From Psychrilyobacter sp. (GTDB lineage: Bacteria > Fusobacteriota > Fusobacteriia > Fusobacteriales > Fusobacteriaceae), in the NCBI GenBank assembly GCA_030621995.1, contig JAUXGP010000045.1, positions 1 through 9,507 on the forward strand: 9,507 nucleotides of DNA, in the 5' to 3' direction. Under the pieces are notes generated by a model that was given only the letters and a program-made list of their open reading frames with translations, was not told the origin of the DNA and made no database searches. Position 1 is the first letter of the stretch. Each line of letters begins with the position of its first letter. This document shows positions 3,505-8,266 of this stretch, piece by piece. The translations under genes were made by a program, and so were the position numbers.

Positions 3505-3547
3505 AAAAGAAGTAGAAGATGGAATCTATCCAGCTTCTACTTCTTTT
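3505..3547. terminator. Bidirectional terminator between GH13 gene and convergent secreted-protein gene
   Basis: AAAAGAAGTAGAAG (3505-3518) and CTTCTACTTCTTTT (3534-3547) form a perfect 14-bp inverted repeat around a 15-nt loop, with TGGA/TCCA able to extend the pairing inside. A or T runs on each arm give a U-tract for both directions. The TAG stop of the minus-strand gene (3537-3539) lies inside the right arm. Confidence 0.9.
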
Positions 3548-4352
3548 CGATTTTTATAGTCCCGTTGGATGTTCCGATGATTAAAAAGTTGTCAGTATTT
3601 AATTTTGAAAACTCATTTTTTACATAGATTAAGTCGCCGAAAATAGAAAAATTAAAGTTATGATTTTCAGGTATCTTTATAGTGAGACTATGATTTGAAG
3701 TAACTATTTTTGAATCGGAGGTAATACTCTGGAATTCGGCTGAAATAGGAGCATTGGATGTGGAAATATCTCCTATTTTTTCAGCATTTTTTATCTTTAT
3801 TTTTTTATGGGTAGTTTGAATATTGAGAATACCCAGGGTATCTTTAGTAGTTACCCGGCTGAACCAGCTTTTTACAGAAATATCTCCTACAATATTGGAT
3901 AATTTGATATCTTTATTTGAATTCATAAGGTCTAGGTCTCCCACCAGGTTATCTATAGTGACCTTTCCCTTGGAGTTATCTATAGAAATTTTCCCATTTA
4001 TTCCATTTACAGTGATAGAACTATTTGTAGTCTTTATAAAATATTTAAAATTAGTATTTTGGGGGATCAAAAGGTTGAATTTAACCTTGATTTTAAAAAA
4101 ACTGTTTTTTTTATGATTGTCTAAATTATATTGTAAAATATCTTCTCTTATACTGGTTTTTATTATGGGATTATTTTTATCCGAAAGCTGATTTAATATT
4201 ATGTTTTCGCCGCCATAGGACGAGATGGTAAGATCGATATATTGGCCCTTGATCTCAATAATTTTAGTGCCTTTAGAGTTGATTACCTCATTGGAAAAGG
4301 CAGCAATATTTATCAGGATTAAGAAAAAAAAGAAAAATACTGAGTTTTTCAT
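3537..4352 (-). CDS. Secreted beta-repeat protein, DUF4097/putative adhesin type
   Basis: The 271-residue protein starts with a Lys, a Phe/Ile-rich hydrophobic stretch and AFS-NE at about residue 20, a Sec signal peptide; there is no lipobox Cys. The rest is rich in Asn, Ser, Ile and Lys. From about residue 112 it holds near-20-residue units of the form G-x-I-x-I-x-N-x-x-G (GKISIDNSKGKVTIDNLVGDLDL), as in the right-handed beta-stack of DUF4097 proteins often labelled putative adhesins. It probably ends up in the periplasm or on the outer surface. A strong AGGAGGAG ribosome binding site (4358-4365) precedes the ATG. The gene is alone in its transcript, divergent from lysR. The family call rests on repeat pattern only, and no binding partner can be inferred. 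Confidence 0.7.
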   Translation of the reverse strand: MKNSVFFFFFLILINIAAFSNEVINSKGTKIIEIKGQYIDLTISSYGGENIILNQLSDKNNPIIKTSIREDILQYNLDNHKKNSFFKIKVKFNLLIPQNTNFKYFIKTTNSSITVNGINGKISIDNSKGKVTIDNLVGDLDLMNSNKDIKLSNIVGDISVKSWFSRVTTKDTLGILNIQTTHKKIKIKNAEKIGDISTSNAPISAEFQSITSDSKIVTSNHSLTIKIPENHNFNFSIFGDLIYVKNEFSKLNTDNFLIIGTSNGTIKIEKK

Positions 4353-6007: not shown

Positions 6008-6121
6008 CTCTTCCTTCTGATGGGGATTTCATGATTATTAAAATTAAGTGTAATTAAAACTTAATTTTAAATATGAACTAAAATAAGGGAAACCGAGGTA
6101 TAAACTTCGAAGAAAGAAAAG

Positions 6122-6157
6122 AAGCTAGAAAATTATTTTGATTTTCTAGCTTTTTTT
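6122..6157. terminator. Terminator of lysR-gmhA, probably bidirectional
   Basis: AAGCTAGAAAAT (6122-6133) and ATTTTCTAGCTT (6141-6152) form a perfect 12-bp stem with a 7-nt loop, followed by a T run on the plus strand. On the minus strand it is followed by a CTTCTTTTC tract, so it can also end the convergent membrane-protein transcript. A smaller hairpin, CGAGGT/ACTTCG with an ATAA loop, lies just upstream (6094-6109). Confidence 0.9.
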
Positions 6158-6195: not shown

Positions 6196-6672
6196 TTAGG
6201 ATAAATATACTGCACTGAGAGCATAGTAGATAGCCAGCAGGCCGGAAAAAACAGCACTGGCCAAAAACCTGAATTTTATAGGGATAAGGTTTTGTATGAT
6301 GAAATTACCAAAGATACTTATGGGCAGAGCTCCTATAAAACTTTTAAAACCAATATTTAAAATAAACCATCCAATTTTTTCATGGGAGAAAAGCTGGATA
6401 AAAAAAATATGTCTGGCTATCCAAATGGGGTTGAAATAACAGAGAGCCAGGACAGTTTTTATGGTTTTTTTATGTTTCAAATGCTTAACTTTTTGATCGA
6501 TCCAGATAAAATAATTTGGGACTTCAAAGGCGTAGACCGTTCCACCCAGTAACATCATGCCCAATATTCTCAAGGGAAGGAGCTCACCTCTTATGAGAGT
6601 TGCAATAGTATCCCCAGCGGAGTAGATGAGTATCCCCCTTAAAATATTATTTTTAGTATAGATTAATTTCAT
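6196..6672 (-). CDS. Small integral membrane protein, Mpv17/PMP22-like
   Basis: The protein has 158 residues from the ATG at 6672, chosen because GGAGGG lies 5 nt upstream; an ATG 27 nt further out has no such site. It is hydrophobic with about four membrane segments and a basic loop (60-72). The order GDTIA (20-24), a Gly-rich second helix ending YFIWID (54-59), NPIW (81-84), then NFIIQNLIPIKFRFL (123-137) and YYALS (149-153) recalls eukaryotic Mpv17/PMP22, whose signature is a C-terminal NF..VP...R and W..YLS. This similarity is my pattern reading and the relation may be distant or convergent. Function is unknown; Mpv17 proteins are proposed channels. The gene is monocistronic and converges on gmhA. 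Confidence 0.75.
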   Translation of the reverse strand: MKLIYTKNNILRGILIYSAGDTIATLIRGELLPLRILGMMLLGGTVYAFEVPNYFIWIDQKVKHLKHKKTIKTVLALCYFNPIWIARHIFFIQLFSHEKIGWFILNIGFKSFIGALPISIFGNFIIQNLIPIKFRFLASAVFSGLLAIYYALSAVYLS

Positions 6673-6756
6673 AAGATCCCTCCAATGTGTATTTTGCACA
6701 AATTTTAAAAGCTAAACCGTAAATTACTCAGATGAATGCAAATATAATTAGAGTAT

Positions 6757-6934: not shown

Positions 6935-7080
6935 TTTATTTTAATAGTTAGTGACATTAGCCGGTTTCAAAATTTAGCTTTTTATAAATATAATTTACTT
7001 AAAAAATTAAAAAATCCTTGTAAAATAGTATAGGGTGTATAAAAAAAGCTTAATCTCTAATAAAACTCTAAGAAAAACAG

Positions 7081-7109
7081 TTGACACTACCTATATCTTG
7101 TAGTATCAT
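7081..7109 (+). promoter_or_regulatory. Strong sigma70-type promoter of structured RNA
   Basis: TTGACA (7081-7086) and TATCAT (7104-7109) are exactly 17 nt apart, the best promoter in the window. Initiation about 7 nt downstream would be at 7116, which is precisely the first base of the RNA's closing stem. Confidence 0.85.
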
Positions 7110-7115
7110 TAAATT

Positions 7116-7343
7116 AACAAGAGACCTTACCTATTAGTGACCATCTTGATGTTTTGGGCCTAATGTCGTCGCCGGGGTTGGCGCTGTATATGATAGATCA
7201 GAAAAATCACGAGGGTATAACGAGCCCCTACGGATACTGTATGTTGTATATATCTGACTACCACTTTTTGAAGCAGGCGACCAAAACTATACAGAGGACT
7301 GTAGGTCAGGACTTGTTTAAAGACTTCTACGAGGTCTTTTTTT
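7116..7343 (+). ncRNA. Structured RNA before rapZ, 6S-like or cis-acting leader (candidate)
   Basis: A transcript from the promoter at 7081-7109 would be about 205 nt plus a terminator. It is about 43% G+C against about 15-23% in the 60 nt blocks on either side, a usual sign of RNA genes in AT-rich genomes. AACAAG (7116-7121) pairs with CTTGTT (7312-7317), and CCTTACCTA (7125-7133) pairs with TAGGTCAGG (7302-7310) with one mismatch, giving a long closing stem. After a mostly unpaired zone on both sides (7134-7151 and 7287-7301), TTTTGG/CCAAAA and GTCGCC/GGCGAC continue the rod. Closing stem, central bubble and inner arm match the 6S RNA plan and length, but I do not recognise its sequence. 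A leader or riboswitch controlling rapZ is the main alternative. Confidence 0.65.
7320..7343 (+). terminator. Intrinsic terminator of the structured RNA
   Basis: AAAGACTTC pairs with GAGGTCTTT around a TAC loop, with one wobble pair, and runs into eight T. It lies 66 nt before rapZ, so it either ends a free-standing RNA or acts as a conditional attenuator. Confidence 0.85.
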
Positions 7344-7383
7344 TATACCTATTAAATTAATCCTTATTTTGATAGTATATAGA

Positions 7384-7389
7384 TATAAT
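7384..7389 (+). promoter_or_regulatory. Possible -10 of rapZ-uvrC promoter
   Basis: TATAAT at 7384-7389 lies 20 nt before the rapZ start and after the RNA terminator. No -35 is seen at 17 nt; TTGATA is only 9 nt upstream. If this is not a promoter, rapZ depends on read-through from 7081. Confidence 0.35.
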
Positions 7390-7408
7390 ATTATTTTGAG
7401 GTGAAATG

Positions 7409-8266
7409 ATGGAAATATTGATTATAACCGGGATGAGTGGTGCCGGAAAATCAACAGCACTTAATTATTTTGAAGATCGAGGATATATGACCATAGACAA
7501 TATGCCATGTTTTTTGATAGATGGATTTAAGCTGTCTGTATATAAAGAAAGGATAAAAAAAATAGCCATAGGGATGGATATCAGGTCATTTGAAATAACA
7601 GATGAGTTTTTGGAATTATTGGAAAGTTTAAAGAGAGAGGATGTTTCCTATAAGATCCTTTACTTAGATGCCAAAGATGAAGTGATCTTAAACAGATATA
7701 ATCTAACCAGAAGATACCACCCTCTGGAAAGATCTAATTCCATGGTTGAAAATATCTACTTAGAGAGAAAAATCTTATCTGAAATAAGGGGGCTGGCGGA
7801 TATAATAATAGATACCAGTGATTTTACACCGAAAAATTTGATTGAAAATTTAAAGGGCAAATTGGAAAATAAAAAAATAAGAGATATGGTATTGACCATA
7901 ACTACCTTTGGATTTAAATATGGAGTACCTATAGATTTGGATATGATGTTTGATGCAAGGTCTCTGCGAAATCCATACTATGTAGATGAACTCCGACCCA
8001 AAAATGGAAATGATCAGGAAGTACAAGAATATGTATTAAAGAACAGGGAGAGTGTAGAATACCTGAAAAAGATAGAAGAAATGCTGGAATTTTTACTCCC
8101 ACATTTTATAAAAGAGGGGAAAACTCACTTGACTGTAGGAATAGGGTGCACCGGCGGAAAACACAGGTCGGTAACTTTAGCCAATAAAATTTATGAATAT
8201 TTTAGTGAAAAGGAAAATATTAAGGTATTATTAAATCATAGGGAGCAGGAAAAATGGATTCTTTAA
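7409..8266 (+). CDS. rapZ: RapZ (YvcJ) nucleotide-binding adapter protein
   Basis: This 285-residue P-loop protein belongs to the RapZ/YvcJ family. Walker A is GMSGAGKST (8-16). TRRYHPL follows in the N-terminal kinase-like half. The C-terminal half has the family block TTFGFKYGVPIDLDMMFDAR (about 163-182), GCTGGKHRS (246-254) and a terminal NHRE (276-279). Length is normal. Of two adjacent ATGs (7406 and 7409), the second is preferred because AGGTG (7399-7403) is then 5 nt away rather than 2. In E. coli RapZ guides RNase E to GlmZ and so controls glucosamine-6-phosphate synthase; in Bacillus YvcJ has a less clear role. The strongly basic E. coli C-terminal tail is not evident here, so RNA binding is not assured. 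It overlaps uvrC; rapZ and uvrC are also near neighbours in many clostridia. Confidence 0.95.
   Translation: MEILIITGMSGAGKSTALNYFEDRGYMTIDNMPCFLIDGFKLSVYKERIKKIAIGMDIRSFEITDEFLELLESLKREDVSYKILYLDAKDEVILNRYNLTRRYHPLERSNSMVENIYLERKILSEIRGLADIIIDTSDFTPKNLIENLKGKLENKKIRDMVLTITTFGFKYGVPIDLDMMFDARSLRNPYYVDELRPKNGNDQEVQEYVLKNRESVEYLKKIEEMLEFLLPHFIKEGKTHLTVGIGCTGGKHRSVTLANKIYEYFSEKENIKVLLNHREQEKWIL

What the first reader, a model, noticed from the sequence alone, without database searches (positions are those of the whole stretch)
7116..7343. Unassigned ~205-nt structured RNA with its own promoter and terminator upstream of rapZ
A consensus promoter with 17-nt spacing, a predicted start that is exactly the first base of a long closing stem, about 43% G+C in a 15-23% neighbourhood, internal stems (TTTTGG/CCAAAA, GTCGCC/GGCGAC) and an intrinsic terminator all agree. 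The rod with a central open zone fits 6S RNA, yet the sequence is not one I recognise, so it could be a divergent 6S RNA or an undescribed family.
Basis: partly seen in the sequence, partly recalled or inferred. Interest (0 to 1): 0.7.

Follow-up and report, generated by a model that had tools for sequence, protein, structure and literature searches.

The report
Divergent 6S RNA of fusobacteria
A fusobacterium carries a divergent relative of 6S RNA, a structured RNA predicted to hold the cell's main RNA polymerase idle by imitating an open promoter; the standard 6S search model misses it in this bacterial family, so it would likely go unlabelled there.

Summary
In detail: an 11-of-12 promoter, a G+C-rich rod and an intrinsic terminator lie at 7081-7344. 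Rfam's 6S model (RF00013) finds nothing in the window or its genome. Relatives supply the link. A covariance model from 30 copies of the window's family (R1) finds one copy in 95 of 98 Fusobacteriota genomes, including all 26 places where RF00013 fires. A model made only from the 21 loci above RF00013's cut-off (R2) finds the window copy at 7118-7317, 93.6 bits, E 2.5e-22. The structure covaries: 25 of 54 pairs change on both sides in the 30-sequence alignment, 40 of 54 in 95 sequences. The predicted pRNA, AUUAGGCCCAAAAC, resembles the B. subtilis 6S-1 pRNA. In 58 of 95 loci the gene follows aspS, as B. subtilis bsrA does; in the window's genus it precedes rapZ. It is a divergent 6S RNA; polymerase binding and pRNA-driven release are inferred. 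Extra leads: a possible collapse helix in this family and an apical UCACG/ACGGA element intact in 93 of 95.

The parts
7081..7109 (+). Promoter: -35 TTGACA 7081-7086, 17-nt spacer, -10 TATCAT 7104-7109
   Evidence: a promoter-like site of 9 or more of 12 stands before 75 of 95 copies (57 of 60 in the window's family, 18 of 35 outside), against 22% of shuffles
7116..7317 (+). 6S RNA body (start and end predicted; models match 7118-7317)
   Evidence: R2, made without any copy of this family, 93.6 bits; R1, which includes this copy, 198.6 bits
7125..7138 (+). Closing stem P1, 5' strand (pairs with 7298-7310); outer extension 7116-7121/7312-7317
   Evidence: 12 of its 13 pairs have a change on both sides in A2; extension
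7298..7310 (+). Closing stem P1, 3' strand
7151..7160 (+). P2, 5' strand (pairs with 7276-7278 and 7281-7287); contains UUUUGG
7276..7287 (+). P2, 3' strand GGCGACCAAAAC
7151..7164 (-). Predicted pRNA 5'-AUUAGGCCCAAAAC, started opposite U7164 (or A7163)
   Evidence: E. coli ssrS nt 44 aligns to window 7163 (counted on the alignments); likeness to the B. subtilis 6S-1 pRNA; synthesis inferred
7161..7173 (+). Central bubble, 5' strand
   Evidence: same order in RF00013 alignments of relatives
7263..7275 (+). Central bubble, 3' strand (position of the -10-like region)
   Evidence: -10 assignment by analogy with PMC8876501 passages
7168..7173 (+). GUCGCC: possible central-bubble collapse helix with GGCGAC 7276-7281 once P2 is opened (alternative register 7165-7170)
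   Evidence: folding prediction with 7151-7164 blocked; census
7174..7181 (+). Apical arm helix P3, 5' strand (pairs within 7254-7262)
7185..7195 (+). Apical arm helix P4, 5' strand (pairs within 7242-7252)
   Evidence: 10 of 11 pairs with a change on both sides in A2
7206..7235 (+). Apical hairpin P6 with conserved UC[A]CG 7207-7211 and [A]CGGA 7230-7234
   Evidence: both strings intact in 93 of 95; columns 7209-7211 and 7230-7232 identical in 95 of 95
7319..7344 (+). Intrinsic terminator (hairpin 7319-7339, T-run 7337-7344)
   Evidence: hairpin terminators follow 38 of 60 copies in this family and 5 of 35 outside it, against 2 of 475 shuffles
7406..8266 (+). rapZ, downstream neighbour in this genus; not part of the RNA
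   Evidence: NF003828, PF03668, PF22740; rapZ beside 7 of 95 copies

Best explanation
The stretch 7116-7317 is a homologue of 6S RNA, likely transcribed from the promoter at 7081-7109 and predicted to bind and block the housekeeping RNA polymerase holoenzyme by imitating an open promoter. The rod has the 6S layout: closing stem, P2, central bubble and apical arm (shown by covariation). Polymerase would be released when it copies the bubble strand from 7164 towards 7151 into a short pRNA. This would open P2 and free GGCGAC (7276-7281) to pair with GUCGCC (7168-7173), collapsing the bubble as in B. subtilis 6S-1 (inferred). The gene is predicted to be free-standing, not a rapZ leader.
For: RF00013 fires in 26 of 98 Fusobacteriota genomes and R1, from 30 copies of the window's family, hits the same 26 places with ends within 2 nt. 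R2, built only from the 21 loci above RF00013's cut-off, hits the window at E 2.5e-22 and the 29 other loci of this family given to it. R1 and R3 place E. coli ssrS at 482-668 of its locus (annotated 484-666) with 15.5 and 21.3 bits, ranking above all non-6S stretches in those small searches (best other match 13.3 and 16.3 bits). Covariation: 25 of 54 pairs in A1, 40 of 54 in A2, no shuffle of 500 as high. pRNA likeness. An aspS-type gene lies upstream in 58 of 95 loci, as aspS flanks bsrA (PMC11077062 passage). One copy per genome, and one RF00013 match at most per genome. Blocking the pRNA site in silico raises expected pairs between bubble and P2 strand in the window from 0.92 to 5.96.
Against: The window copy is invisible to RF00013, and none of 61 genomes of its family reaches the cut-off; only G009 shows a sub-threshold hit (stricter filters). 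The ssrS scores are low (E 0.021 and 0.0027 in searches of 16-19 kb), and R2 with default filters did not report ssrS. The collapse helix is possible in 55 of 60 rows of this family but 0 of 35 others, and in the window 6 of 100 shuffles of the bubble strand do as well. Its variation is almost all on one side of a pair, and blocked folding reaches 3 expected pairs in only 30 of 60 rows (9 of 60 already when free). 17 of 35 copies outside the family have no promoter-like site of 9 or more of 12. No transcript, polymerase-binding or pRNA data were available.
Confidence: 0.92

Rival explanations
1. It is a 6S homologue whose working has shifted, for instance binding core polymerase as Ms1 does, or acting without pRNA-driven release.
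For: Sequence departs far enough from RF00013 to be missed; part of the apical arm of relatives is not shown as matched in RF00013 alignments, and that arm holds a conserved element.
Against: The pRNA template strand, P2 and the 3' bubble strand CCAC are among the most conserved parts, as expected if copying and holoenzyme binding are kept.
Confidence: 0.05
2. It is a cis-acting leader (riboswitch or attenuator) of the downstream gene, or a GlmZ-like partner of RapZ.
For: rapZ starts 89 nt after the RNA on the same strand, and rapZ follows in 7 of 95 loci, the window's genus.
Against: A terminator separates them. The downstream gene is of argS type in 48-49 of 95 loci and something else in others, while the RNA stays the same.
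Confidence: 0.02
3. It is an undescribed RNA family that only looks like 6S RNA.
For: No Rfam match in 7000-7420 better than E 4.4.
Against: RF00013 itself accepts 21 relatives at the orthologous place and R2 closes the circle.
Confidence: 0.01
4. The region codes for a 68-aa peptide (7154-7360).
For: An open frame exists there and stays open in some same-genus copies.
Against: The same frame stays open for 60 or more residues in only 7 of 88 copies tested (7 of the 95 lack the anchor motif); changes preserve base pairs.
Confidence: 0.01

Closest known systems
6S / SsrS RNA, Rfam RF00013
   Same: Length, rod layout, central bubble, P2 and pRNA template position; 21 of 98 Fusobacteriota genomes pass its cut-off at the same locus.
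   Different: The window copy has no match, and 0 of 61 genomes of its family reach the cut-off.
Bacillus subtilis 6S-1 RNA (bsrA)
   Same: pRNA GUUCGGUCAAAACUA against predicted AUUAGGCCCAAAAC (10 of 13 letters with one inserted base); gene after aspS in 58 of 95 relatives; possible collapse helix.
   Different: Downstream gene is mostly of argS type or, here, rapZ, instead of yrvM; one copy per genome, where B. subtilis has two 6S RNAs.
Escherichia coli ssrS (L036)
   Same: End-to-end covariance alignment; nt 44 falls on window 7163.
   Different: Only 15.5-21.3 bits; most of its apical arm is not shown as matched; the E. coli release hairpin was not looked for here.
Copies in other Fusobacteriota families (for example Leptotrichia hongkongensis, L114)
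   Same: Homologues, R1 121.9 bits for L114.
   Different: 26 of 35 read GUAAAGCCCAAAAA at the pRNA site; 0 of 35 can form a collapse helix of 6 or more pairs.

Membership tests
6S RNA (SsrS) | Homology to accepted 6S RNAs | tested here: met
   R2 from 21 RF00013-passing loci hits the window at E 2.5e-22; 26 of 26 RF00013 places coincide with R1 places
6S RNA (SsrS) | About 200-nt rod: closing stem, P2, central bubble, apical arm | tested here: met
   RNAalifold and pair counts
6S RNA (SsrS) | pRNA template at the P2/bubble border, pRNA with GG at 4/5 or 5/6 (rule from PMC8414754, passages) | tested here: met
   AUUAGGCCCAAAAC has GG at 5/6 (4/5 if started opposite 7163); site. A site prediction only, no pRNA observed
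6S RNA (SsrS) | Binds housekeeping sigma-RNA polymerase holoenzyme | not testable with these tools
   needs a binding assay
6S RNA (SsrS) | Serves as template for pRNA and is released by it | not testable with these tools
   needs in vitro transcription or small-RNA sequencing
6S RNA (SsrS) | Abundant, growth-phase dependent transcript | not testable with these tools
   no expression data
Rfam RF00013 as modelled in release 15 | Score at or above 46.4 bits | tested here: not met
   no match in the window or own genome; the homology claim rests on intermediates, not on this score
B. subtilis 6S-1 type | Gene follows aspS | tested here: inconclusive
   true for 58 of 95 copies, not for the window, where the neighbours differ
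B. subtilis 6S-1 type | Central-bubble collapse helix | tested here: inconclusive
   6 or more contiguous pairs possible in 55 of 60 copies of this family, 0 of 35 others; window 6 of 100 bubble shuffles as good; window refolds when the pRNA site is blocked

The most novel reading that the evidence does not exclude
The fusobacterial 6S RNA has gained a phylum-specific docking element: the apical UC[A]CG/[A]CGGA hairpin, about 30 steps up the arm from the bubble and so near promoter position -40, is read by sigma region 4, the alpha C-terminal domain or a separate protein, and tunes which polymerase is blocked and when. The Fusobacteriaceae added a collapse-helix release switch that their sister families lack.
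Probability: 0.3. Interest if true: 0.6.

Novelty: new member of a known kind. Interest (0 to 1): 0.4.

Why it matters
RF00013 accepts 0 of 61 genomes of the window's family, although R1 finds the gene in 60 of 61, so pipelines that rely on it would leave a probable global transcription regulator unlabelled. The alignments and models here could fill that gap, show that one family can drift out of a covariance model while its relatives stay in, and give testable sites for pRNA, collapse helix and apical element. The shared place after aspS in many Fusobacteriota and in Bacillus hints at an old gene order.

Tried and rejected
Direct Rfam search of 7000-7420 at E up to 10 gave only two chance-level matches, snR64 (E 8.5) and RT-6 (E 4.4), on the other strand. 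RF00013 on 13 genomes of the window's family at E up to 10 gave one hit, G020:C2:1377249-1377352, 23 bits, E 0.016. It is not where R1 places the RNA in G020 (C2:463274-463476), and I take it as chance. R3 on the three genomes without an R1 match (G003, 62% complete; G086, 86%; G061, 91%) found nothing, which the tool says shows nothing by itself. A pattern scan of genome contigs gave 24 stretches: 23 have Fusobacteriota titles and one is an Acidimicrobiaceae MAG (L120). I tested 5 of the 24 with R1: 4 confirmed, L120 had no match.

Literature: nine searches were answered. Their listings held no paper on 6S RNA of Fusobacteria, but several listings were capped (for example 20 of 100, 20 of 643, 8 of 18,770). 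The papers most likely to mention it, as I recall them (Ponath 2021, Zhu 2024), and Wehner 2014 and Barrick 2005, are not held. I therefore make no claim that fusobacterial 6S RNA is unreported. Of the papers cited I saw passages only: PMC8414754, PMC12005410, PMC8876501, PMC11077062, PMC3871023.

Limits of the tests. A1 holds the 30 loci returned for the 35 BLASTN matches (five matches came without a locus), all in the window's family and including the window's own copy; R1 and R3 therefore match the window by construction, and R2 is the independent test. A1 also includes L027, which has a sub-threshold RF00013 hit. R2's loci were chosen by RF00013, but their ends were taken from R1 matches. 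A2 was fitted to R1's structure, so its pair counts lean towards it; A1 (MAFFT) was not. Searches over 40 genomes used stricter filters. The promoter shuffles were first-order Markov samples and the terminator shuffles single-base shuffles. In one search the pRNA census picked a wrong site in two rows (2 of 95, L105 and L106) and none in seven; these are not counted as support.

Full report
What is there. At 7081-7109 lies TTGACA-17-TATCAT, 11 of 12 consensus matches. From about 7116 to 7317 runs a G+C-rich stretch (44.1%, against 22.5% and 17.7% on either side), followed by a hairpin at 7319-7339 and a T-run at 7337-7344. Downstream are rapZ (7406-8266) and a uvrC-type frame (from 8254). Upstream, on the other strand, is a 167-aa frame with no Pfam or NCBIfam match. 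The fold of 7116-7343 is a long rod, -63.6 kcal/mol, but only modestly more stable than shuffles (z -1.82, 7 of 200). Thermodynamics alone would not have established an RNA.

Direct family searches fail. RF00013 (6S) has no match in the window at the gathering score or in 7000-7420 at E up to 10, nor in the window's own genome.

Relatives supply the answer. BLASTN finds the stretch in 35 of 61 genomes, own included. From the 30 loci returned, all in the window's family (f1 in the tool's tables, Fusobacteriaceae by record titles), I made alignment A1. RNAalifold gives 54 pairs, 25 of which are kept through changes on both sides. All five pair measures exceed 500 of 500 shuffles, and slid partners drop to 34-41% paired against 96.2%. 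Model R1 finds one copy in 95 of 98 Fusobacteriota genomes: 60 of 61 in f1 and 35 of 37 outside. The misses are G003 (62% complete), G086 and G061; the wider model R3 did not recover them.

The bridge to 6S RNA. RF00013 fires in 26 of the same 98 genomes, 21 over its cut-off. 25 of the 26 lie outside f1, and one (G009, below cut-off) in f1. All 26 places coincide with R1's, on the same strand, with ends within 2 nt. As a reverse test I built R2 from the 21 loci over the cut-off only (A3). R2 finds the window at 7118-7317 with 93.6 bits, E 2.5e-22, and the 29 other f1 loci that I gave it. E. coli ssrS is aligned end to end by R1 (15.5 bits, E 0.021; best other match 13.3 bits) and by R3 from all 95 copies (21.3 bits, E 0.0027; best other 16.3), with ends within 2 nt of the annotated gene. 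These are low scores in small searches, and R2 under default filters did not report ssrS. Homology to 6S RNA is well supported, although the window copy is not a member of RF00013 as scored today.

Anatomy across 95 copies (A2; 91 distinct rows). 95.6% of cells are standard pairs (80.5% in shuffles) and 40 of 54 pairs have a change on both sides (26.1 in shuffles, none of 500 as high). A2 was fitted to R1's structure, so A1 is the fairer test. The order is closing stem P1, an internal loop, P2 (7151-7160 with 7276-7287), the central bubble (7161-7173 and 7263-7275) and an apical arm. RF00013's alignments of two relatives show the same order. Among the most constant columns are U7152, U7153 and U7155 of P2, GG 7174-7175, CC 7261-7262 and the apical ACG 7209-7211 and ACG 7230-7232, each 95 of 95. 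The strings UCACG and ACGGA are intact together in 93 of 95; L105 and L106 depart. Printed RF00013 alignments leave out part of that arm, so I read the element as a fusobacterial speciality; I did not survey 6S RNAs of other phyla for it. Counting about 30 steps from the bubble places it near position -40 of the mimicked promoter (inference).

Predicted pRNA. The R3 alignments put E. coli nt 44, the pRNA start as I recall it, on window 7163. Copying from 7164 or 7163 gives 5'-(A)UUAGGCCCAAAAC. B. subtilis 6S-1 makes GUUCGGUCAAAACUA (PMC12005410, passage). The two share 10 of 13 letters with one inserted base. The GG at 5/6 or 4/5 fits the rule in PMC8414754 (passages). In f1 the string is (A/C/G)UUAGGCCCAAAAC in 46 of 60 and CAUAGGCCCAAAAC in 7; outside f1 it is GUAAAGCCCAAAAA in 26 of 35.

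Release switch. That is the design of the B. subtilis central bubble collapse helix, formed between the 5' bubble strand and the 3' strand of P2 (PMC8876501, passages). In 55 of 60 f1 rows a helix of 6 or more contiguous pairs is possible, and in 0 of 35 others; but for the window's own 6 pairs, 6 of 100 shuffles of the bubble strand do as well. With the pRNA site blocked in silico the window forms 7168-7173 with 7276-7281. Expected pairs between these strands then rise from 0.92 to 5.96 in the window, from 1.17 to 3.01 on average in f1, and from 0.07 to 0.24 elsewhere. Only 30 of 60 f1 rows reach 3 pairs when blocked (9 when free), and the variation is almost all one-sided, so this step is an inference.

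Gene order. In 58 of 95 loci the RNA follows an aspS-type gene on the same strand, 0-117 nt away; each is at least 56% identical to the L008 copy in its local alignment, and one representative was named AspS by NCBIfam. An argS-type gene follows in 49 loci, 48 of them at 40% identity or more, one representative named ArgS. B. subtilis bsrA lies between aspS and yrvM (PMC11077062, passage; PMC3871023 lists the same for B. licheniformis). In the window's genus rapZ follows instead (7 of 95). A same-genus contig of identical length is titled Psychrilyobacter sp. (G001 and L119), so I take the window as Psychrilyobacter or a near relative. Promoter-like sites of 9 or more of 12 stand before 57 of 60 f1 copies and 18 of 35 others (22% in shuffles). 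Hairpin terminators follow 38 of 60 f1 copies and 5 of 35 others, and a U-run (7 or more of 8) directly after the closing stem follows 18 of 60 and 25 of 35. A changing downstream gene beside a constant RNA argues against a leader function.

Verdict. It is a 6S RNA, divergent enough to escape the standard model. Polymerase blocking and pRNA release are inferred from family knowledge. Whether fusobacterial 6S RNA is already in print I cannot say: nine searches, some with capped listings, showed none, but key papers are not held. I recall two transcriptome and sRNA-interactor studies of Fusobacterium nucleatum that may well list it.

Noticed in passing
L033, L034, L082-L088, L091, L099 upstream; L032, L094, L095, L100 downstream: In 15 loci outside the window's family the neighbouring gene falls in one cluster that reads like a Crp/Fnr-type regulator (my reading of one member's sequence, no HMM run), instead of aspS or argS.
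   Followed up: no
window 6196-6699 (-): 167-aa frame without Pfam or NCBIfam match, found by tblastn in 5 of the 95 loci, own included.
   Followed up: partly
window 3537-4352 (-): 271-aa protein with no Pfam or NCBIfam match.
   Followed up: no
window 6117-6157: Low-scoring matches of the 6S models (13.8-16.3 bits), on both strands with R3, between two convergent genes; probably a two-way terminator hairpin.
   Followed up: no
loci outside f1 such as L035, 3' end: A U-run follows the closing stem directly in 25 of 35 copies outside the window's family, so the base of the rod may double as the terminator.
   Followed up: partly
L105, L106 (genus g7): Most diverged copies within the window's family (90.2 and 84.9 bits with R1); the only two of 95 without the UCACG/ACGGA strings.
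   Followed up: no
G020:C2:1377249-1377352: Weak RF00013 match (23 bits) away from the R1 place in that genome; taken as chance.
   Followed up: no
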